Source: Acidimicrobiia bacterium
GTDB lineage: Bacteria; Actinomycetota; Acidimicrobiia; Spongiisociales; UBA11373
Reading direction: 5' to 3'
Length of the DNA: 64,000 nt
Assembly: GCA_040902765.1 (NCBI GenBank)
Contig: JBBDWO010000028.1
Coordinates: 194,069 to 258,068, forward strand
Shown: positions 11,004 through 64,000 of the stretch, piece by piece
Layout: the number at the start of each line of letters is the position of its first letter
How positions within the stretch are numbered: the first letter of the stretch is position 1
Program-made: the position numbers and the translations under genes
Notes under the pieces: generated by a model
What the model was told of the DNA's origin: nothing
Database searches by the model: none
The model's input: only the letters and a program-made list of their open reading frames with translations

Positions 11004-11984
11004 ATGCGCCTTGCCTTCAGTCCCTCCGCACCTGGCGCCGATGCCGCCACCCTGGTCGATCTCTGCGTCGAGGCGGAGGCACTCGGCTTCGAGGAGGCGT
11101 GGCTCGCCGAGGTCGCCGGCCCGGAGTCGTTCGCCCTCGCCGGGGCGATCGCTGCAGCGACCATCACTATGGCGCTCGGGGTCGCCGTAGTCCCTGCCTC
11201 GACCCGGACCCCGGCGCTGCTGGCGATGGGGGCGGGGACGATCAGCCAGGTGCTGCGCGGCCGCGAGTTCTGCCTCGGTGTCGGCTCGTCGTCCCAGGTG
11301 ATCGTCGAGACCTGGCACGGGGCGCCATTCGCGCCCCCGCTCGCCCGGGTGCGAGAGACGGTGGAAGCGACGCGGGCGCTCCTCGGAGGGGAGCGCTCCT
11401 ATGCCGGCACCCTGGTCCGCGCCGACCGGTTCACGCTCACCTCGCCGCCGGTCGGCCCGGTCCGGCTGTTCGTCGGTGCGCTCGGTCCGCGGATGCTGCG
11501 CCTCGCCGGTGCCGTCGGGGACGGCGTGTGCCTCAATCTCATGCCCCCCGAGGTGGTGCCCCGGCAGCTCGCCGAGATCCGGCGGGGAGCCGAGGAAGCC
11601 GGCAGGGATCTACCCGAGCACTTCCGGGTGATGGCGCGGTTCCACACCGTGATCACCGACGATCGAATCGCCGGTCGGGAGGCGATTCGGATGGGCTTTG
11701 GTCCCTACTTCGCACAGCCCGTGTACAACCGCTTCCTCGCCTGGTGCGGCCATCCGGATGCGGCGGACGCCATCGCGGCGGCGTTCACCGCCGGCGATCG
11801 GGCCGGTGTCGCGGCCGCGCTCACCGACCAGGTCGTCGACGGCGTGGCCATCGTCGGATCGCCCGACGAGGTCTCCGCCCGCCTCGATGAGTACTCCGTT
11901 GCCGGCGTCGACGTCGGTGCGATCAACCTGCTCGGGTCGCCGGAAGCGGTGACCGACGGCCTGAGGGCCCTGTCGGGCCGCTAG
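11004..11984 (+). CDS. LLM-class F420-dependent oxidoreductase
   Basis: 326 aa of the luciferase-like TIM-barrel family: LGFEEAWLAEVAGPE near the N-terminus, the cofactor strand GREFCLGVGSS, and a closing VAIVGSPDEVSARLDEY. Close relatives are F420H2-dependent reductases; a flavin cofactor cannot be excluded from sequence. The stop TAG uses the first base of palindromic element copy 1. Confidence 0.75.
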   Translation: MRLAFSPSAPGADAATLVDLCVEAEALGFEEAWLAEVAGPESFALAGAIAAATITMALGVAVVPASTRTPALLAMGAGTISQVLRGREFCLGVGSSSQVIVETWHGAPFAPPLARVRETVEATRALLGGERSYAGTLVRADRFTLTSPPVGPVRLFVGALGPRMLRLAGAVGDGVCLNLMPPEVVPRQLAEIRRGAEEAGRDLPEHFRVMARFHTVITDDRIAGREAIRMGFGPYFAQPVYNRFLAWCGHPDAADAIAAAFTAGDRAGVAAALTDQVVDGVAIVGSPDEVSARLDEYSVAGVDVGAINLLGSPEAVTDGLRALSGR

Positions 11985-12074
11985 GGGGTGCGCGAATAGG
12001 CTCGCCCCGGGATCAGGTTTCGGCTTGCCACAAGCCGAAACCTGATGAAGCCAGCGACCTATTCGCGCACCCCC
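11984..12074 (+). mobile_element. 91-bp nested palindromic element, copy 1
   Basis: Outer arms GGGGGTGCGCGAATAGG (11984-12000) and CCTATTCGCGCACCCCC (12058-12074) are perfect 17-bp inverted repeats. Inside them, ATCAGGTTTCGGCTTG (12012-12027) and its complement (12031-12046) form a 16-bp stem with a 3-nt loop. The asymmetric linkers (CTCGCCCCGGG and GAAGCCAGCGA) still allow a 4-bp TCGC/GCGA pairing. The element fills the whole gap between two convergent genes and touches both stop codons (TAG left, TAA right). It may also end transcription in both directions. Confidence 0.85.
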
Positions 12075-15201: not shown

Positions 15202-15210
15202 ACGGGTTTT

Positions 15211-15568
15211 GAGTTCGCCTATAAGCCGGATTCTGTGCCGGTTTCCCGGTGGTGACCATCTATCTGGGCCCGCCGTTGCCGACGGGCTCGTGCGGCCTAC
15301 CCGGACCGTCGGACGGGCCGTCCTGGTCCTGCTTGGCCTTGCTCCCGGTGGGGTTTGCCGAGCCGCCCCGGTTGCCCGGTGCGCTGGTGGTCTCTTACAC
15401 CACCGTTTCACCCTTGCCTGTGCCCTCGCGGGCCATCGGCGGTCTGCTCTCTGTTGCACTTTCCGTCGGGTTTCCCCGCCTGGGTGTTACCCAGCACCGT
15501 GCCCTGTGGAGTCCGGACTTTCCTCGAAGCGACGCCGAAACGCCGCTCCGCGGTCACCCGGCGAACTC
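15211..15568 (-). ncRNA. rnpB: RNase P RNA (bacterial type A)
   Basis: The minus strand begins GAGUUCGCCGGGUGACCGCG and ends in CCGGCUUAUAGGCGAACUC. The first and last nine bases pair perfectly as helix P1, giving 358 nt. The universally conserved segments are present, including the GGAAAGUCCGGACUCCAC block (plus strand about 15510-15530) and the 3' CUUAUAGGCGAAC region. RNase P RNA is the ribozyme that matures tRNA 5' ends. Exact ends are estimated from P1 pairing. Confidence 0.95.
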
Positions 15569-15638
15569 ACCATCAGTATCCCGCAGTAACGCCTTCAACG
15601 CCAGGGGAATTCCCCCGAGGCGTCGAACGGATCGTGGC

Positions 15639-45896: not shown

Positions 45897-46910
45897 ATGA
45901 GCCTTCGCGACGACGTTCTCGCCGCCGGGCGGGTCGCCGGGCTCGCTGGAGTCGGGGTGTGCGCCGCTGAGCCATTCTCCGATGTCGAAGAGAACTTGCG
46001 CGATGCGGTGGCGTCGGGGCGCTCTGCCGGGATGCGTTTCACTTTCGGGACGCCCGAGCGATCGAGTGACGTCACGGCGAGTTTCGCCTGGGCCCGGTCG
46101 CTCGTGGTCGGCGCCCACGCCTACCTCCCCGCAGCGGGTAACCCGATCCCCGGCGACGGTGAGGGGAGGGTTGCCCGGTTCGCCGTGTCCGATCACTACG
46201 CACCGCTGCGTGAGGCCCTGACGACGATCGCCGACCTGTTACGGGCACGGGGCCATGAGGCGCAGATGCTCGCCGACGACAGCCGTCTGGTCGATCGCGC
46301 CGCGGCCGTCAGGGCCGGGGTCGCCTGGTGGGGGAAGAACACCATGGCACTGATACCCGGGTATGGCCCGTGGGTGCTCCTGGGCAGCGTGGTGACCGAC
46401 GCCATCATCGACTCCGACGAGCCGATGCGCCGCACCTGTGGCACCTGTGAAGCCTGCCTCCCTGCCTGCCCCACCGGGGCCCTCATCGAGCCCGGCATCC
46501 TCGACGCGCGGCGGTGCATCGCTTACCTGCTGCAGTCGCCCGGGAACATCCCCGAAGGATTCCGGGAGGCCGTGGGTGATCGGTTCTACGGGTGTGACGA
46601 CTGCCTCGACGCCTGTCCTCCCGGCGCCCCGCTGGTGCGGAGGTCTCCGGACACCACCGAGACTCCTGACATGGCGGCGGTCTTGGAGAGCTCCGACGAG
46701 GAGCTGCTCGATCGATTCCGACGCTTCTACATCCCGGAACGGGATCCGGCCTTCCTCCGTCGGAACGCGCTCGTCGTCCTGGGCAACGTCGGCGACCGGT
46801 CGCATCGGTCACTGGTCGCCGGCTTCGCCGCCTCAGACGACCCCATGCTGAGCGAGCACGCCCGTTGGGCACTCGCTCGCATCGACGAGCGGCTGGCCGG
46901 AGCATGCTGA
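45897..46910 (+). CDS. queG: Epoxyqueuosine reductase
   Basis: 337 aa. It reduces epoxyqueuosine in tRNA to queuosine using cobalamin. The N-terminal cobalamin domain includes FAVSDHYAPLREAL, DSRLVDRAAAVRAGVAWWGKNTMALIPGYGPWVLLGSVVTD; two [4Fe-4S] sites follow: CGTCEACLPACPTGAL and FYGCDDCLDACPPGAP. The C-terminal HEAT-like repeat (RRNALVVLGNVGD) is present. It overlaps the phosphoesterase by 7 bp. Confidence 0.9.
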   Translation: MSLRDDVLAAGRVAGLAGVGVCAAEPFSDVEENLRDAVASGRSAGMRFTFGTPERSSDVTASFAWARSLVVGAHAYLPAAGNPIPGDGEGRVARFAVSDHYAPLREALTTIADLLRARGHEAQMLADDSRLVDRAAAVRAGVAWWGKNTMALIPGYGPWVLLGSVVTDAIIDSDEPMRRTCGTCEACLPACPTGALIEPGILDARRCIAYLLQSPGNIPEGFREAVGDRFYGCDDCLDACPPGAPLVRRSPDTTETPDMAAVLESSDEELLDRFRRFYIPERDPAFLRRNALVVLGNVGDRSHRSLVAGFAASDDPMLSEHARWALARIDERLAGAC

Positions 46911-47656
46911 TCGTCTCCGACATCCACGGTGCCTTCGAACCGCTGGCGCGGGTGGCGGGGCGCGGTGAGCCCCTGCTGGTCCTGGGCGACCTCCTCAACG
47001 TCATCGACTACCGGACCATGGACGGCATGCTCGTCGACGTGTTGGGGCGCGCCCTGGTCGCCGACGTCGTGGAGCGGCGGTCCCGGGGGGACCACGACGG
47101 GGCCAACCACGCCTGGCGGACCGCGGTGGCCGGATCCGAGGAGGCGGTGCGCCGCCGGTTCCACGAACTCACCGTCAGCGCCTACGAGACCGCGGCCACC
47201 GCCCTCGCCGGATCGGACGCCATCGTCACCTACGGCAACGTCGACCGCCCCGACCTGCTCGAAGCCTCGCTGCCCGAGGGGGTCCGCTTCGTCGAGGTGG
47301 GCGTGGTCGAGGTCGAAGGCCGGTCCGTCGGGATCGTCGGCGGAGGTATCCCGTCGCTGGGAACGCCAGGCGAGGTGGCCCACGAGGTGATGCGGGAGCG
47401 ACTGTTCGGTCTCGGCGAGGTCGACATCCTGTGCACCCATGTGGCACCGGCGGTGCCCCAGCTGAGCCTCGACGTGATCGGGGGGAGTACCAAGCAATCC
47501 CAAGCCGTGCTCGACTATCTCCTCCGGTTTCGACCCGGATGGCACTACTTCGGCGACATCCACCAGCCCCAGGCGGTGAGCTGGCGGGTGGGGAGCACCG
47601 TGTGTCGCAACGTCGGCTACTTCCGGGCGACCGGGCGGGCCGTGCGTCATGGCTGA
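46904..47656 (+). CDS. Calcineurin-like metallophosphoesterase
   Basis: 250 aa. Metal-binding motifs: SDIHG (5-9), VLGDLL, TYGNVD, THVAP and FGDIHQP. This is a full di-metal phosphoesterase core with an unusually acidic first half. ATG 46904 lies inside the queG end. Its stop TGA (47654-47656) once overlapped the start of the next gene (ATG 47649), now interrupted by palindromic element copy 2. Confidence 0.8.
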   Translation: MLIVSDIHGAFEPLARVAGRGEPLLVLGDLLNVIDYRTMDGMLVDVLGRALVADVVERRSRGDHDGANHAWRTAVAGSEEAVRRRFHELTVSAYETAATALAGSDAIVTYGNVDRPDLLEASLPEGVRFVEVGVVEVEGRSVGIVGGGIPSLGTPGEVAHEVMRERLFGLGEVDILCTHVAPAVPQLSLDVIGGSTKQSQAVLDYLLRFRPGWHYFGDIHQPQAVSWRVGSTVCRNVGYFRATGRAVRHG

Positions 47657-47657
47657 G

Positions 47658-47748
47658 AGCGCGCGCCAATAGGCTCGCCCCCCGGAATAAGGTTTCTGCT
47701 TGGCACAAGCAGAAACCTCATCGGCCCCGCGACCTATTGGCGCGCGCT
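47658..47748 (+). mobile_element. 91-bp nested palindromic element, copy 2, with 5-bp target duplication
   Basis: Outer arms AGCGCGCGCCAATAGG (47658-47673) and its exact complement (47733-47748). Inner stem is TAAGGTTTCTGCTTG against CAAGCAGAAACCTCA with a 3-nt loop GCA and one mismatch. Direct repeats CTGAG flank it on both sides (47653-47657 and 47749-47753). Removing the element and one CTGAG rebuilds ATGGCTGAGGTCGATCTC, a clean in-frame start for the methyltransferase overlapping the upstream stop. The outer arms differ from copies 1, 3 and 4 but remain self-complementary. Confidence 0.9.
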
Positions 47749-48488
47749 CTGAGGTCGATCTCGGGCGGCTCGCCGCGGCATACGACCATCGCGTCGAGGC
47801 CGGCGCAGTCCGGCGAGCAGGCATCGCTGCCGACACGACGGGGCTCGGCTCCGGCGCGACCGTGGTCGACGTGGGAGGTGGCAGGGGGGTCCACGCCGTC
47901 GTGTTCACCGAGCGCGGGGCCCGTGCCGTCGTCGTCGATCCGTCGCCGGCGATGGTCCTCGCCTCACACCGTCGGGGCGTCGTCGGCGTGGTCGCCCGGG
48001 GCGAGTCGCTTCCCATCGCGGACGGTGTGGTGGACCTCGTCTACTTTCACCTGTCCATCCATCACGGCGCCTGGCCCGACATGCTCGCCGAGGCCGCTCG
48101 GGTGGCCGGATCTCGGGGCCGGATCTGGGTGTGGACCTTCCCCGACACCTATCACGAGAACTCGTACCTGGCCCGCTGGTTTCCTTCGGTGGCTGCCATC
48201 GATGCAGCCCGTTTCCCCCCGGTCGAGGGCCTGCGCACCGGACTCGCCGATCTCGGACTCGTCGTCGCCCCGACCGTGGCCCATCACGATCGGATCAGTC
48301 GCCCCGCCGGTGCCTGGATGGCGGCGGTTCGGGCCGGTTTCGTCAGCACGCTCCATCTGGTCCCGCCCGATGAGATCGAAGCCGGCTTGGTTGCCTTCGG
48401 GAGCCGGCACCCCGATCCGTCCGAGTCGATCGAGTACGACCTGCCCTACCTGGGTCTGCACGCCGAAGGGCCGGGGCTAGTGTCATGA
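47700..48488 (+). CDS. SAM-dependent methyltransferase (class I), start rewritten by an inserted element
   Basis: About 262 aa. VVDVGGGRGVHAVVF is SAM motif I, VVVDPSPAMV motif II, GVVARGESLPIADGVVDLVYFHLSIHH motif III/IV, with AARVAGSRGRIWVWTFP after it. The original start (ATG 47649) now ends after seven codons inside element copy 2. The open frame today begins at TTG 47700 in the element's inner stem, 7 nt after AAGG, adding about 17 foreign residues before EVDLGRLAAAYD. It may therefore be expressed poorly or not at all. The substrate is unknown. Confidence 0.7.
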   Translation: MAQAETSSAPRPIGARSEVDLGRLAAAYDHRVEAGAVRRAGIAADTTGLGSGATVVDVGGGRGVHAVVFTERGARAVVVDPSPAMVLASHRRGVVGVVARGESLPIADGVVDLVYFHLSIHHGAWPDMLAEAARVAGSRGRIWVWTFPDTYHENSYLARWFPSVAAIDAARFPPVEGLRTGLADLGLVVAPTVAHHDRISRPAGAWMAAVRAGFVSTLHLVPPDEIEAGLVAFGSRHPDPSESIEYDLPYLGLHAEGPGLVS

Positions 48489-56532: not shown

Positions 56533-57729
56533 ATGATTTCGCTTCCTGAGCCCATCCTGCATGTCGATGCCGACTCGTTCTTCGTCGCCGTGGAGCGGCT
56601 GCGACGGCCCGAGCTGTGCGATCGCCCCGTGCTCGTCGGTGGCGACGGCCCGCGCAGCGTGGTAGCGGCGGCGTCCTACGAGGCGCGCCGACATGGAGCG
56701 CGGTCGGCGATGCCCATGGTCATGGCGAAACGGCTGTGCCCGACTGCCGTCATCGTGGCCGCCGATCACGCCGAATACCGGCGGGTGTCGGAGGAGCTCA
56801 TGGCGGTACTCGGCGAGGTGACCTCACGCGTCGAGCCGATCTCGATCGACGAGGCCTTTCTCGACCTCACCGGTGTCGATGGGCCGGGCGGGGCCATCGC
56901 CATCTCCGAGCGGCTCCGTCGGTTGGCACAGGAGCGGGTCGGGGTCACGGTCTCGGTCGGCATCGCAGCGACCAAGTTGGTGGCCAAGATGGCCTCTCGG
57001 GACGCCAAGCCCGACGGCCTGCTGCTGGTCCCGGCGGGGGCTGAAGCCGACTTCATGCATCCGAAATCGGTTCGCGCTCTCTGGGGGGTGGGGGAGGCGA
57101 CGCTGGCACGACTGGAGGAACTCGGGATACGAACGATCGGGGATCTGGCGGGGTTCCCGAGGGCGACGCTGGCGCGTCGTCTGGGCGAGGGGCTCGGAGG
57201 GGTCCTCTGGGATCGGGCCCATGCCATCGACGAGCGCGAGGTTGAGCCCGACATCGGGATGCGGTCGATCTCGGTCGAGGAGACCTACCCCGTCGACCTC
57301 CTCGGCGACGACGCCGTCGCCCGCGCCCTGCTCGCCCATGCCGCCGAACTGACCCGGAGACTGCGGGAGGCGGGGGTCGCCGCCGGCACCATCACGGTGA
57401 AGGTTCGGTTCGGAGACTTCACGACGGTGTCGCGCTCTCACACGCCGACGCGGCCGGTGGTCGACACCACCGGGGTGCTCGATGAGGCACGCCGGCTGCT
57501 CGCCGCCGCCGACCGACGGGACCAGGGGGTGCGGCTCCTCGGTATCGCGGGAAGCGCCCTGATTCCCGCCGATGCCCCGCGCCAGCTGGTGCTGGGGGAG
57601 GACGACCAGCGCTCGGTCGACGAGGCGATCGGGCGAGTCCAGGACCTATTCGCTCACCCCCTAATGCCGAAGTCGGACCCCTCGGTATACTCGAAAGACG
57701 ACCGGAGATCACCCGATGCCCCTCGATGA
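56533..57729 (+). CDS. dinB: DNA polymerase IV (Y family), altered C-terminus
   Basis: 398 aa translesion polymerase. Metal ligands: D12 in HVDADSFF and D106/E107 in SIDEAFLD; VAAASYEARRHGARSAMPM is the steric-gate/nucleotide region; SVGIAATKLVAKMAS and HhH segments follow. The little-finger domain ends at about VDEAIGRV. After that the frame reads through a 20-bp piece identical but for one base to an end of the 91-bp element (QDLFAHPL) and a non-conserved tail that overlaps the next gene by 14 bp. No beta-clamp motif is obvious at the tail. Confidence 0.88.
   Translation: MISLPEPILHVDADSFFVAVERLRRPELCDRPVLVGGDGPRSVVAAASYEARRHGARSAMPMVMAKRLCPTAVIVAADHAEYRRVSEELMAVLGEVTSRVEPISIDEAFLDLTGVDGPGGAIAISERLRRLAQERVGVTVSVGIAATKLVAKMASRDAKPDGLLLVPAGAEADFMHPKSVRALWGVGEATLARLEELGIRTIGDLAGFPRATLARRLGEGLGGVLWDRAHAIDEREVEPDIGMRSISVEETYPVDLLGDDAVARALLAHAAELTRRLREAGVAAGTITVKVRFGDFTTVSRSHTPTRPVVDTTGVLDEARRLLAAADRRDQGVRLLGIAGSALIPADAPRQLVLGEDDQRSVDEAIGRVQDLFAHPLMPKSDPSVYSKDDRRSPDAPR
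57643..57662 (+). repeat. Relic of the 91-bp palindromic element inside dinB
   Basis: GACCTATTCGCTCACCCCCT matches the right end of element copy 1 (12057-12076) at 19 of 20 bases. Neither the inner hairpin nor a left arm is found next to it. Confidence 0.6.
57686..57691 (+). promoter_or_regulatory. -10 box (TATACT) of the DUF3040 gene
   Basis: TATACT lies in the dinB tail, 24 nt before ATG 57716, and would give a short leader containing the CGGAG ribosome site at about 57702-57706. Confidence 0.45.
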
Positions 57730-58617: not shown

Positions 58618-58650
58618 GCGCCCTGCGAGGGGGACCGCCCCGTCGGGTCA

Positions 58651-58741
58651 GTGGGCGAGCGAATAGGCTCGCCCCTGGATCAGGTTTCGGCTTGTGGCAA
58701 GCCGAAACCTGATGAAGCCAGCGAGATATTCGCTCGCCCCC
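58651..58741 (+). mobile_element. 91-bp nested palindromic element, copy 3
   Basis: Left arm GTGGGCGAGCGAATAGG (58651-58667) against GATATTCGCTCGCCCCC (58725-58741): 13 bp pair without a break; the base of the stem and the two bases next to the linkers are mismatched. Inner stem ATCAGGTTTCGGCTTG is identical to copies 1 and 4, with loop TGG. Direct repeats TCAGTG flank it (58648-58653 and 58742-58747), overlapping the left arm by up to 3 bases. It lies between the ends of merR and the transglutaminase gene and supplies the latter's last codons. Confidence 0.85.
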
Positions 58742-61091
58742 TCAGTGACCGCAGGCTGTATCGGGACGCGATCCGCCGCCCCAACGAGTACCGACCGACG
58801 ATCTGGAACTCGGTTTCCTGGAACGACTCGCCGGCTGCGGCGACGTCTTCGGGCGAGGGCGTGCCCGGTGGGCCATAGGCGGCCCGGGCGTAGATCACAG
58901 CGAGTGGGGCCAGCGCCGCCGTGGCCCTCCGGGCGATCTCGGCCGGCGTCGCGGTGAGCGGCGGACCCTCGCCAAGGTCGGTGAGGCGGTCGACGATCTC
59001 CACCCAGGCGGCCCCGATGTCGCCATCTTCGAGCCGGCGCACCCGCGACCGACGGCGCCCCCACTTGAGTACCGGCAGGGCGGCGACCAGCGCGACCACG
59101 AGTAGCCCGATGCCCACGGCTCTGAATGGTACGGGCAGGCCCGGCGAGGCGTTCTCGCCGGCGTCGGTCGTCGGCACGGTGGTCACCACTGAAGGATCGG
59201 TGGTCGGATCCTCCTCGAGAGGAGTCTGGCCGGGAAGTGTCGGTTGGGTCGGCGAGCCCGGCTCGGGCAGCGCCGCCTCGAGATACTCGGCCACGGCGAA
59301 GGGGATCGCTTCCAGGGCTCCTGGGTTGACTCCGTCGCCCCGCGGCGTGGGGTCGAAGGTGACCCAGCCCTGGGTCGGCATCCACAGTTCGACCCAGGCG
59401 TGGGCGTTGCGATCCCGCACTACGAAGGTCCCATCGTCGGCGTAGGAGCCCGGCGTGAAACCGAGCACCACGCGACTCGGGATCCCTACGGCCCGGGCCA
59501 TTACCCCCATCGCAGTGGCGTACTGCTCGCAGTAGCCGACCCGGTAGTTCGGGCTGCTCGGGTCGAGCAGCCAGGCCTCGAGATCCGTTGCGCTGTGCCC
59601 GGGCACGATCTGCGTCGAGTACTGGAACCCACCGCCCGTCTTGAAGAGGGCCTCGAGGGCGAGGCCGCGCTCGTAGTCGGTCTCCAGGCCCGCCACCTGT
59701 TGGTGAGCGAAGTTGGGGATTCGGTTCCCGATGTCGTCGGGCAGGTCTAGGAAGTGGGCCCGGTCGGGCAGCGACCGGGTCGTGTACTCCAGGGGTTCGT
59801 CGCCGAGGTCGAACGCCCCGTCCTCGATGGCGGCGGCGAACACCACCGACGGGTCGCCGTCGTCGCCCAGTGACAGCACTCGGAGGTCCGGGACCGGCAC
59901 CTGCGAGATCACGGTGTAGCTCATCCCCCGGTAGGTGAGGGCGTCGAAACGAAGCGATCCGTCGTCGCGCTTCACCCGCAGGCCCCGCTCCACCGTCCGG
60001 TCCGGGGACGAGAAGGAGATCGGGGCGTACGGAGCGGGGAGCCAGTCCATCTGGAGCTGGGAGATCGTCACCGTCGAGGTGACCCGGCTGACCGGACCGA
60101 GGAAGGCGGTCGACGGGGGTTCGAAGGTGTCGATGTCGTCGATCGAGGCGATGCCGGCGCCCCCTCCGACATGCCACTGGAGACCGTTGAATGAGTCGAG
60201 CGTGAGCAGCCGCCAGTACACGGTGCGCGGGTCGACGCCTCCCTCCACTCGGGCACTGAACACCGGCACCGTCGACGAGGAGACGAGGCTCTGGCGAATG
60301 CCGACGAACGGGTTGTACTGGATGCTGCCCAGGTACTCACCGGTGAGCGAGGTGCTGGTGCGCCATGCCAGGTAGCCGCTGCGCGGCACCGCACCGGCCA
60401 GGGCCTGTCCGGCGAGCAAGGACACCGCCACGACGGCGCCGACGACCGCGATCCCCAGCGAGGGGAGGGATCGGTCGAGGGCGCGCCGGGTCGCCCGGGA
60501 GGTGAGCAGTCCGGTGCCGGATCGGCGTTGGTCGAGCATGACAGCGAGCAGGCTGGCGCCGATGGCGAGCATCAACCAGACCGTCCAGACACCGCCGGGT
60601 CGCCGGTCCATGACGGCGAACTCGAGATATACGAGAAGTGGGGCGAGCACCGCCACGTAGGGCCGATTGGCCAGCAATCCCCACGCCAGGACGGCGCCGA
60701 GCGCCCAGAAGACCACCGCCATGACGGCGACGATCCCGGCGAAGGGCATGACCGGGGCGATACCACTCCCGATGACGTCGCGCGCGAGGGCGAGTTCCTC
60801 GCCGAGCGCCGGAACCGACGCCGTCGTCGGGAAGACGAACCAGGTCGTCTCGGGGACCGAGATGCGCACGAGGGTGAGCGTGGCGGCAATGAAGTTGAGT
60901 ACCGTCACCCACCGGCCGCGGATCCGGTAGGCGACCGCTGCCCAGGTGATGGCACCGCCCAGGAGGGCGGCAGCGATCATCACGGCCTGCCAGGGCAGCC
61001 CCTCGATCGTCGGTCGGAGGAGGCGGCTCGATCGGCCGAGCGCGAGCAGGATGCCCGCGCCGCCCGCTACCCAGCTGAGGCGGTAGACCAT
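58680..61091 (-). CDS. Membrane-anchored transglutaminase-like protein (TgpA type)
   Basis: About 803 aa. The first 260 residues hold seven or so membrane helices, then an extracytoplasmic region with a transglutaminase core: GYCEQYATAMGVMARAVGIP (catalytic Cys), NAHAWVELWMPTQGWVTFDPTP (His and Asp), a Thr/Pro linker, another helix and a DUF4129-like tail. It belongs to the MoxR-DUF58-TgpA module. The last residues, GFGLPQAET and the preceding ten or so, are translated from element copy 3, so the natural C-terminus has been replaced. ATG 61091 has GGAG 5 nt upstream and overlaps DUF58 by 25 bp. Confidence 0.85.
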   Translation of the reverse strand: MVYRLSWVAGGAGILLALGRSSRLLRPTIEGLPWQAVMIAAALLGGAITWAAVAYRIRGRWVTVLNFIAATLTLVRISVPETTWFVFPTTASVPALGEELALARDVIGSGIAPVMPFAGIVAVMAVVFWALGAVLAWGLLANRPYVAVLAPLLVYLEFAVMDRRPGGVWTVWLMLAIGASLLAVMLDQRRSGTGLLTSRATRRALDRSLPSLGIAVVGAVVAVSLLAGQALAGAVPRSGYLAWRTSTSLTGEYLGSIQYNPFVGIRQSLVSSSTVPVFSARVEGGVDPRTVYWRLLTLDSFNGLQWHVGGGAGIASIDDIDTFEPPSTAFLGPVSRVTSTVTISQLQMDWLPAPYAPISFSSPDRTVERGLRVKRDDGSLRFDALTYRGMSYTVISQVPVPDLRVLSLGDDGDPSVVFAAAIEDGAFDLGDEPLEYTTRSLPDRAHFLDLPDDIGNRIPNFAHQQVAGLETDYERGLALEALFKTGGGFQYSTQIVPGHSATDLEAWLLDPSSPNYRVGYCEQYATAMGVMARAVGIPSRVVLGFTPGSYADDGTFVVRDRNAHAWVELWMPTQGWVTFDPTPRGDGVNPGALEAIPFAVAEYLEAALPEPGSPTQPTLPGQTPLEEDPTTDPSVVTTVPTTDAGENASPGLPVPFRAVGIGLLVVALVAALPVLKWGRRRSRVRRLEDGDIGAAWVEIVDRLTDLGEGPPLTATPAEIARRATAALAPLAVIYARAAYGPPGTPSPEDVAAAGESFQETEFQIVGRYSLGRRIASRYSLRSLRGRANISLASSGFGLPQAET

Positions 61092-62244
61092 GATCGCTCC
61101 AGTGCGGTTCTCCACGGGCGAGCCCAGCTCAGGTCGGGCGTCGACACGACGGTGATCGCCGCCGATCGCTCCAGCATGCTCAGGGCCTCACCCGGCTCGG
61201 CGACCGCCATGACGATGGTGCGAGTGAAGTCACGAGTGAGGTTTCGGTACGCCGCCAGCACAGCGTCGTCCGGTTGTCCGGTCACCAGCACCAGGGCACC
61301 GCCGCCGACTCCCTGACGCCGCATGTTGGTCACGGCGGCTCGGAGATCGACGTGCTGGAGCGGCTGGATGGTGGCGAGCGCCTCGAGGGCCTGCCGGTAC
61401 CGATTCCCCGTTCGCGTTCCGGGTGCCCGTTCCGAGGTCCACAGATCCGGGCTGAACCCTCCCCGATAGAGGTGCGCCACCGCCGATGCGGCTCCGCGCA
61501 CCGCGTGCTCGAACGCCTCATCGTCCCCATAGCGCTCGGCGCGGGCGTCGAGAAGGACGAGGGCTCGCGACTGCCACGGGATCTCGAGCTGCTTGATCAT
61601 GATGTCGCCGCGCTTCGCCGTCGACGGCCAGTGGACTTTCCGCAGGTCGTCGCCGATCTGGTACTCGCGAAGCGTGAAGAAGTCGTCGCCGCCACGCGGG
61701 GCATAGGTGGGCCTGGTCGCCTGCACCGCCGGATCGTTACCGCGGACCGCCGGGAAGCCGCGGAGGGTCTCGATGCGCGGGTACACGAGCAGACGATCGA
61801 CCGGGCCTGCGGTGCGCCGGTGGTCGACGAGTCCGAGGGGATCGGTCACGGACACCTCCGTCGGCCCGACCGGATACACCCCTCGCTCCCGACACGAGAC
61901 CTCGTACCTGGCGACGACGGGGTCGGATGGGAGGGTTCGGGCCGCGGCGAACCTGGCGACGCCCAGGCCGTGGACCGTATCCTCGACCTGCACGTTGCGC
62001 ATCCGGCGTCGTGCAGACAGGTTGACCTCGATGGTGACGGTGTCCCCGGCGTGCGCTGCCGGTGGGTGGAGCCTTCGGTCGACCTCGATCGCCGTCGAAG
62101 ACAGACGAACGAACACCATCCCCGCGGTCACGGCGACGCCCAGGAACACGGCGGTGGACATGAGCTCTCGCTCCCCGAAGGCGAGCCAGAGGACGAGGAG
62201 GGCCACGGCGACTCCGATCGCCGTCCATCCTCGCGTCGTCGGCA

Positions 62245-63375: not shown

Positions 63376-63948
63376 GTGCGCCGTATCGACACGCTCATGG
63401 ACCAACTGACGCGCCTGCCCGGCGTGGACACCGCCGATGTCGACGGCGATGGCGACACGCCGCAGAGCGTTCGCGTCCGTATGCGCTCGGGAGCGGATGC
63501 CCGGGCCGTCGGTGTCGAAGTCCAGCGGCTGCTCGCCTCGTACGGGCTGCGGTCGCGGATCTCGAACGACGAGGTGGTGTCGCTGTCAGAGGTGGCGCCC
63601 GCCCCCGCCCCCGCCGCCACACCCTCCAGCCGCATCGCATCGGTGACGGTGCGGGAGGCGGCGGAAGGCACCACCATCACCGTGGACGGTGGTGGACAAG
63701 CCGTGACCGAGTCGAGCGACGGAACTCGGGCCGGGCTGGCTCGTGCCGCCGCCGTCGCCGTCGGACGGATCCTCGTCGGAACTCCGGTCGCCCTGCTGTG
63801 GTTCGACACTTCCGAGGTGGATGGTCAGCAGGTGGTGTCGGTGCTGGTCGAATGCCCCGACGGCGCCCGGGTCGCCGGCGCGGCCACCGTCCGGGGCGAG
63901 GTGGCCGCCGGCGTCGCTCGGGCCGTGGCGGCGGCGCTCTCCAACTAG
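63376..63948 (+). CDS. Hypothetical protein, Val/Ala-rich with two repeat-like halves
   Basis: 190 aa from GTG 63376 behind GGGAG. Residues 1-70 (PGVDTADVDGDGDTPQSVRVRM, VGVEVQRLLASYGL) look like a small alpha-beta domain. An Ala-Pro linker (APAPAPAATP) follows, then a second domain (SSRIASVTVREAAEGTTI, AGLARAAAVAVGRIL, PVALLWFDTSEVDGQQVVSVLVE). It is divergent from MoxR and shares its promoter region. Its stop codon TAG touches element copy 4. Function unknown. Confidence 0.6.
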   Translation: MRRIDTLMDQLTRLPGVDTADVDGDGDTPQSVRVRMRSGADARAVGVEVQRLLASYGLRSRISNDEVVSLSEVAPAPAPAATPSSRIASVTVREAAEGTTITVDGGGQAVTESSDGTRAGLARAAAVAVGRILVGTPVALLWFDTSEVDGQQVVSVLVECPDGARVAGAATVRGEVAAGVARAVAAALSN

Positions 63949-64000
63949 GGGGTGCGCGAATAGGTCGCTGGCTTCATCAGGTTTCGGCTTGCCACAAGCC
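63948..64000 (-). mobile_element. 91-bp nested palindromic element, copy 4, inverted and cut by the window edge
   Basis: GGGGGTGCGCGAATAGG (63948-63964) is identical to the left arm of copy 1. The linker reads TCGCTGGCTTC, the reverse complement of the right linker in copies 1 and 3, so this copy is in the opposite orientation. The inner stem ATCAGGTTTCGGCTTG, the loop CCA and the first six bases of the returning arm are present before the window ends. It begins at the last base of the preceding gene's stop codon. Confidence 0.85.

What the first reader, a model, noticed from the sequence alone, without database searches (positions are those of the whole stretch)
11984..12074. A family of ~91-bp nested palindromes with a fixed core and covarying outer arms
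Seen: copies at 11984-12074, 47658-47748, 58651-58741 and 63948-end, plus a relic at 57643-57662. The inner hairpin (AGGTTTCGGCTTG-type, 3-nt loop) is nearly invariant, while the outer arms differ (GGGGGTGCGCGAATAGG, AGCGCGCGCCAATAGG, GTGGGCGAGCGAATAGG), yet each arm still pairs with its own partner. Independent drift would break pairing, so either structure is selected (RNA or cruciform) or the arms are copied from one another during movement. No transposase is in the window, so it would be a non-autonomous element. I do not recognise it as a named family.
Basis: partly seen in the sequence, partly recalled or inferred. Interest (0 to 1): 0.9.

Follow-up and report, generated by a model that had tools for sequence, protein, structure and literature searches.

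The report
Mobile DNA hairpins with co-changing arms
A family of 91-base DNA hairpins is scattered through a bacterial genome, often right beside gene stop signals; each is likely a tiny jumping element moved by a borrowed enzyme, and its two arms, which change together base for base, are probably copied from one another by slips in DNA replication rather than kept matched by a working RNA.

Summary
The window has three full copies and one cut by the contig end; its genome has 29 full copies plus 10 cut at contig ends. Seven of 14 genomes of its family carry the element, and 0 of 381 other sampled genomes of its class.

Copies are flanked by 3-bp direct repeats at a palindromic CTNAG target: 35 of 87 exact; where both flanks read TNA (38 copies), N agrees in 32, p=8e-12. 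At parB only the window's genome has it, of 13. It is a MITE-like element; repeat length, target and terminal-repeat length match the IS1031 group of IS5, but no transposase with these ends was found.

Arms covary (21 of 37 pairs, 0 of 500 shuffles), the inner hairpin included. Two results favour copying over RNA selection: unmatched pairs show no G-U preference on the transcribed strand (45 vs 42), and the 3-nt apical loop occurs as TGG and its reverse complement CCA, 11:11, a known footprint of template switching. Against: in one relative close copies differ by one-sided changes, and whether copying happens in place or during movement is unresolved.

The parts
11984..12074 (-). Full copy, type A (GGGGGTGCGC arms); flanks CTA / TTA (2 of 3 identical). 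'-' means the side with TCGCTGGCTTC is 5' on the minus strand.
   Evidence: 165 bits as query, second identical copy at G000:C17:7445
11984..12000 (.). Left outer arm GGGGGTGCGCGAATAGG; pairs with 12058-12074
12058..12074 (.). Right outer arm
12012..12046 (.). Inner hairpin ATCAGGTTTCGGCTTG-CCA-CAAGCCGAAACCTGAT: 16-bp stem, 3-nt loop at 12028-12030
47657..47749 (-). Full copy, type B (GAGCGCGCGCC arms), 93 nt
47654..47656 (+). TGA target repeat, left; also the stop codon of the ORF 46865-47656 (metallophosphoesterase-like)
47750..47752 (+). TGA target repeat, right
58651..58741 (-). Full copy, type A variant (arms GTGGGCGAGCG / CGCTCGCCCCC); flanks TCA at 58648-58650 and 58742-58744
63948..64000 (+). 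Partial copy (first 53 nt); the contig G000:C28 ends here (258068 of 258068)
57645..57661 (-). Solo 17-nt end (relic) GGGGGTGAGCGAATAGG on the minus strand, flanked by TTA (TAA at 57662-57664 on +), at the 3' end of a dinB-like gene

Best explanation
Each copy is likely a non-autonomous DNA transposon (a MITE): a 91-bp palindrome flanked by a 3-bp direct repeat at CTNAG targets, predicted to have been inserted by an IS1031-like transposase acting on its 17-bp terminal repeats, and its two arms match probably because replication template switching copies one arm onto the other. Shown: many dispersed copies; 3-bp flanking repeats whose middle base agrees far above chance; a palindromic CTNAG target; presence at parB in one genome and absence in 12 relatives; two abutting copies sharing one TTA; paired changes in both stems; loop inversion at 1:1; no strand preference of wobble pairs. 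Inferred: a DDE transposase supplied from elsewhere or since lost (step: 3-nt staggered cut at C^TNA^G, insertion, gap filling). Inferred: hairpin extrusion lets the polymerase switch to the complementary arm, which turns a one-sided change into a matched pair and, when the switch is between strands, inverts the apical loop; the same hairpin instability yields the shortened copies by deletion between direct repeats. Inferred: the frequent overlap with stop codons is a survivor effect, because TNA contains TAA/TGA or their complements and an insertion there leaves the gene's reading frame intact.
For: Copies: 29 full-length plus 10 cut at contig ends in a 1.99-Mb genome. Target repeats: 35 of 87 copies have 3/3 identical flanks (TCA 13, TGA 12, TAA 5, TTA 2, TTG, CGA, TAG 1 each), C before in 28 of 35, G after in 28 of 35; of 38 copies with TNA on both sides, N agrees in 32 against 30% expected, p=8e-12. 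A type-B and a type-A copy abut as TTA-B-TTA-A-TTA. parB: the element follows the stop codon in G000 and is absent from the loci of 12 relatives. Two relatives have insertions at different points of the same intergenic gap, each showing the other's empty site (L109/L146). IS1031 members prefer TNA, make 3-bp repeats and can have 17-bp ends starting GA (PMC12016507, passages seen). Arms: 21 of 37 pairs change on both sides; in 18 type-A copies of 91 nt 10 private matched double changes against 0.19 expected from independent change. Loop: TGG 11, CCA 11 of 29 in G000, CGG 3, CCG 3 of 7 in G005; L001/L002 and L004 differ by loop inversion alone. RNA selection disfavoured: GT 45 vs AC 42 on the transcribed strand in 42 tandem contexts, p=0.83. 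Template switching homogenises arms and inverts spacers (PMC8604942, passages). Deletions: the four identical 26-nt forms are all from the A allele, the one with a 9-nt near-repeat GCTCGCCCC/GCTCACCCC.
Against: No transposase with these ends was found: PF01609 hits only 2 of 14 family genomes, both non-carriers; PF13586 and PF01797 none of 14; PF00665 in 5 of 7 carriers but not in G000; I looked for matching ends at 7 of the 11 rve matches in carriers and found no inverted pair of them. In G007 nearest copies (8 of 25, those of 91 nt) differ by 18 one-sided changes and 0 matched doubles, and in G005 and G007 one-sided changes outnumber matched doubles. The pair L125/L145, same place in two species, shares a C-A mismatch in the inner stem, so no correction since their split. 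If copying went on steadily in place, the asymmetric internal loop should be homogenised too, and it is kept. In a minimum spanning tree of G000 copies only 1 loop-inversion step is strictly needed within type A; recurrence rests on both loops also occurring in type B and on the 1:1 ratio. Broken pairs rise as target repeats decay over all copies (6.2% vs 12.2%, p=7e-4), but within each genome this is not significant (p 0.11-0.30). All carriers are draft assemblies; reads were not available.
Confidence: 0.62

Rival explanations
1. The hairpin works as an RNA (3'-end protector, terminator or small RNA) and selection on the transcript keeps the arms paired.
For: Very stable predicted folds; 21 covarying pairs; 19 of 29 G000 copies touch the stop codon of an ORF of 100+ codons against 24 of 75 CTNAG sites in the window; the C-A mismatch kept in L125/L145 is G-U on the strand of the flanking genes (by reading).
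Against: No G-U preference on the transcribed strand, 45 vs 42; both orientations relative to genes; no intrinsic-terminator match at the three full window copies and 0 of 174 copy-ends with 5 or more T in the next 8 nt; no Rfam family; loop inversion is not what selection on an RNA loop would give.
Confidence: 0.13
2. The element moves as a folded single strand (like REPINs or integron attC sites), and only well-paired hairpins are recognised, so active lineages covary by selection on the DNA hairpin.
For: Bulged G and asymmetric internal loop are conserved, as in sites read as single strands (recalled); REPIN spacers also show frequent compensatory changes (PMC3116915, passages).
Against: Target duplications of 3 bp at a palindromic target are the mark of a staggered double-strand cut; no Y1 transposase (PF01797) in any of 14 family genomes; does not explain loop inversion.
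Confidence: 0.13
3. Arms are rebuilt at each move: a fold-back intermediate copies one arm from the other during transposition.
For: Matched doubles are frequent in copies with intact target repeats (e.g. L010, L016, L020, L065, L066), while old copies in G005 and G007 have more broken pairs.
Against: The age trend is not significant within any one genome group; no known element does this, to my knowledge; ordinary template switching needs no new step.
Confidence: 0.08
4. Loop flips (and part of the arm matching) are assembly artefacts of a palindromic repeat in a metagenome bin.
For: Ten of 70 contig ends of G000 lie inside copies, so the assembler struggled here; short k-mers cannot tell loop orientations apart (reasoning).
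Against: The same pattern is seen in separately assembled relatives (CGG/CCG in G005, TGG/CCA in G008); copy-private matched doubles at unique loci are not expected from collapse.
Confidence: 0.06

Closest known systems
MITEs derived from the IS1031 group of the IS5 family
   Same: 3-bp TNA target duplication, 17-bp terminal repeats that in type B begin with GA, no coding capacity, many copies
   Different: No autonomous partner or IS5-type transposase found in carriers; nearly the whole element is palindromic and its arms covary
RUP, Correia/NEMIS, ERIC and other bacterial MITEs
   Same: About 100 bp, long stem-loop, target duplication, intergenic (PMC2229807, passages)
   Different: Those listed there mostly carry terminal TA motifs and are A+T-rich; here the target is CTNAG with a 3-bp repeat and the element is 55-76% GC
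REPINs with RAYT transposases
   Same: Small palindromic doublets in extragenic space with compensatory changes across the hairpin (PMC3116915, passages)
   Different: No Y1/RAYT gene in 14 family genomes; a target duplication is present here
Quasipalindrome template-switch mutation
   Same: Arm homogenisation and spacer inversion (PMC8604942, PMC8794818, passages)
   Different: There, single loci; here a mobile repeat family in which both footprints are common. PMC8794818 found compensatory change with loop inversion only 6 times in rRNA

Membership tests
MITE | Short, no transposase gene, many copies | tested here: met
   91 nt; 29 full copies in G000
MITE | Target site duplication of constant length | tested here: met
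   3 bp; N agrees in 32 of 38 TNA/TNA copies
MITE | Terminal inverted repeats shared with an autonomous element | tested here: not met
   Terminal repeats present; no longer element with these ends in G000, G004, G005, G008, G013; G007 and G012 not scanned
IS1031-group (IS5) derivative | TNA target and 3-bp repeat | tested here: met
   group rule from PMC12016507
IS1031-group (IS5) derivative | IS5-type transposase in the genome | tested here: not met
   PF01609 and PF13586: 0 of 7 carriers; PF13340 and PF13359 not searched; drafts may lack IS elements
REPIN | RAYT / Y1 transposase | tested here: not met
   PF01797 0 of 14
REPIN | No target duplication (recalled) | tested here: not met
   Duplication present
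Intrinsic terminator | T-run after the stem | tested here: not met
   0 of 174 copy-ends with 5 or more T in 8 nt
Known structured RNA (Rfam 15) | Match at gathering score | tested here: not met
   Window: only RNase P at 15206-15569; 6 loci at E up to 1: the only match over a copy is a weak miRNA model, 23.2 bits against a gathering score of 75
Integron attC site | Integrase and cassette array nearby | not tested
   Copies are dispersed singly through the contigs, which argues against it; no integrase search was made

The most novel reading that the evidence does not exclude
The hairpin replicates its own symmetry: each move passes through a fold-back intermediate in which one arm is the template for the other, so the family drifts in sequence while staying palindromic, and flips its loop at random each time.
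Probability: 0.1. Interest if true: 0.85.

Novelty: new member of a known kind. Interest (0 to 1): 0.48.

Why it matters
Whether matched changes in hairpins come from selection or from one arm being copied onto the other is a long-standing question. PMC8794818 (passages) calls its own evidence for maintenance of stems by template switching circumstantial and finds compensatory change with loop inversion extremely rare. This family offers about 87 parallel hairpins in seven genomes where both footprints are common and no RNA-level preference is seen, so the question becomes testable by counting. It also warns that covariation alone, the usual proof of a functional RNA, can arise in a mobile DNA palindrome.

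Tried and rejected
A 26-bp mobile element: four identical 26-nt forms with their own flanking repeats (TGA/TGA, TGA/TGA, TCA/TCA, TAA/TAG) at G000 C20:21170, C4:26237, C14:71148 and C23:622 first looked like the smallest transposon. Rejected as the first choice: all are of the A allele, the one with a 9-nt near-direct repeat that would give this deletion again and again. Other short forms (G000 C2:32835; G008 L165, L167, L168, L170) fit deletion as well.

RNA function: strand-specific wobble test negative, terminator test negative. Autonomous element: end-motif scan of five genomes, four transposase families, ends near 7 of 11 rve matches in carriers (L185 holds two same-direction motif hits, GGATAGG and GAATAGG, not followed further). 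Vertical inheritance of old insertions: of four element pairs with both flanks homologous, two have opposite orientation and one has different insertion points, so shared places mostly mean repeated insertion into the same gaps. Age test by target-repeat decay: significant over all copies, not within genomes. Gene context by a home-made codon-position score: rough, used only for the wobble test. Paper searches for the family itself: searches gave nothing describing it; small dispersed repeats of cyanobacteria and double-hairpin elements of mitochondria are recalled, their papers not found or not read.

Dropped rows: and one search use only copies of exactly 91 nt (22 of 29 in G000, 8 of 25 in G007, 7 of 13 in G008; one search also 4 of 7 in G005; counts). 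The alignment behind the model holds 42 copies of the 87.

Full report
What is there. The window (G000:C28:194069-258068) holds full copies at 11984-12074, 47657-47749 and 58651-58741, a copy cut by the contig end at 63948-64000, and a solo 17-nt end at 57645-57661. Each full copy is a palindrome in two storeys: a 17-bp outer stem continued by TCGC/GCGA across a bulged G, an asymmetric internal loop (TGGCTTC against CCCGGG in the commonest form), and a 16-bp inner stem with a 3-nt loop. There are two main arm types in this genome, A (GGGGGTGMGC) and B (GAGCGCGCGN).

How many and where. A covariance model from 42 copies finds 29 full copies in the 1.99-Mb genome; 10 more are cut off at contig ends, that is 10 of 70 contig ends. 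In the GTDB-like family, 7 of 14 genomes carry it: G000 29, G007 25, G008 13, G005 7, G013 6, G004 5, G012 2. In 395 genomes sampled from the class, under stricter filters, 7 carry it, all in this family. Viral contigs, phages and plasmids: none. Rfam: none at gathering score.

Mobility. Thirty-five of 87 copies have three identical bases on both sides; they are TNA in 32 (TCA 13, TGA 12, TAA 5, TTA 2), with C before and G after in 28 of 35 each. Of 38 copies with TNA on both sides, N is the same in 32 (30% expected; p=8e-12). At C14:21180-21365 a B and an A copy abut, sharing a TTA. At parB, G000 has the element after the TGA stop, and the model finds none in the parB loci of 12 relatives. 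In one intergenic gap G004 and G012 have insertions at different points, each showing the other's empty place. A TNA target with a 3-bp repeat is the stated habit of the IS1031 group of IS5 (PMC12016507, passages).

Stop codons. Nineteen of 29 G000 copies touch the stop of an ORF of at least 100 codons, against 24 of 75 CTNAG sites in the window (Fisher p=0.0035); over all genomes 46 of 87. I read this as survival of harmless insertions, not as aiming at stop codons.

Why the arms match. In 42 copies 21 of 37 pairs changed on both sides. Among 18 type-A copies of 91 nt in G000, private changes comprise 10 matched doubles, 1 double to a wobble and 17 one-sided; independence predicts 0.19 matched doubles. 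So arms do not drift apart independently. If an RNA were selected, one-sided intermediates should be G-U on the transcribed strand; in 42 tandem contexts they are 45 GT and 42 AC (p=0.83), and over all copies 80 GT and 89 AC. The apical loop gives a positive clue: TGG 11 and CCA 11 of 29 in G000, in both arm types (A 8 and 10, B 3 and 1); L001 and L002 differ from L004 in nothing but this inversion. Three simultaneous changes that yield the reverse complement are what template switching between strands makes (PMC8604942 and PMC8794818, passages).

What does not fit smoothly. In G007 nearest copies of 91 nt differ by one-sided changes only (18 to 0), and G005 and G007 copies carry more one-sided than matched changes. 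The orthologous pair L125/L145 keeps one inner-stem mismatch in both species while its outer arms changed (two matched doubles, four one-sided or mismatched, by reading). Thus correction is not constant in old copies; it may act mainly in young, perfect hairpins or in lineages still moving. Broken pairs are commoner in copies with eroded target repeats (12.2% vs 6.2%, p=7e-4), but within single genome groups the trend is not significant.

Engine. Four transposase families were sought in 14 genomes: PF01609 in 2 non-carriers, PF13586 and PF01797 in none, PF00665 in 11 but not in G000 or G012. No longer element with these ends was seen in the five carriers scanned. The enzyme is therefore unknown; drafts that break at repeats can hide it.

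Shortened copies. Four identical 26-nt forms with own flanking repeats occur in G000. They are explained by deletion between GCTCGCCCC and GCTCACCCC, a near-repeat present in the A allele and absent from the C allele.

Verdict. A real, family-restricted, MITE-like palindrome family; its covariation is more likely mutational copying than RNA selection.

Noticed in passing
58651-58741 and 58680-61115 (-): The ORF of a TgpA-type transglutaminase protein (Pfam TgpA_N, Transglut_core) runs into the element and ends inside it at 58680, so the element appears to supply its last ~20 codons.
   Followed up: partly
57645-57664: A solo element end lies at the 3' end of a DinB-like (Y-family) DNA polymerase gene (IMS, IMS_C) and may have become coding or stop sequence.
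   Followed up: partly
15206-15569 (-): Bacterial RNase P RNA class A, 295.6 bits.
   Followed up: no
L162 (G000:C20:38076-38140): A palindrome with similar outer arms (GAGGGTATGCGAATAGG) and TCA/TCA flanks but an unrelated interior, perhaps a third kind of cargo between the same ends.
   Followed up: no
L145 (G012:C152): The copy is preceded by a second right arm (CCCATTGGTGCACGCCC-GAC), as if a tandem neighbour had been lost.
   Followed up: no
G000 contig ends: Ten of 70 contig ends of this metagenome bin lie inside the repeat: short palindromic repeats alone can fragment a bin.
   Followed up: yes
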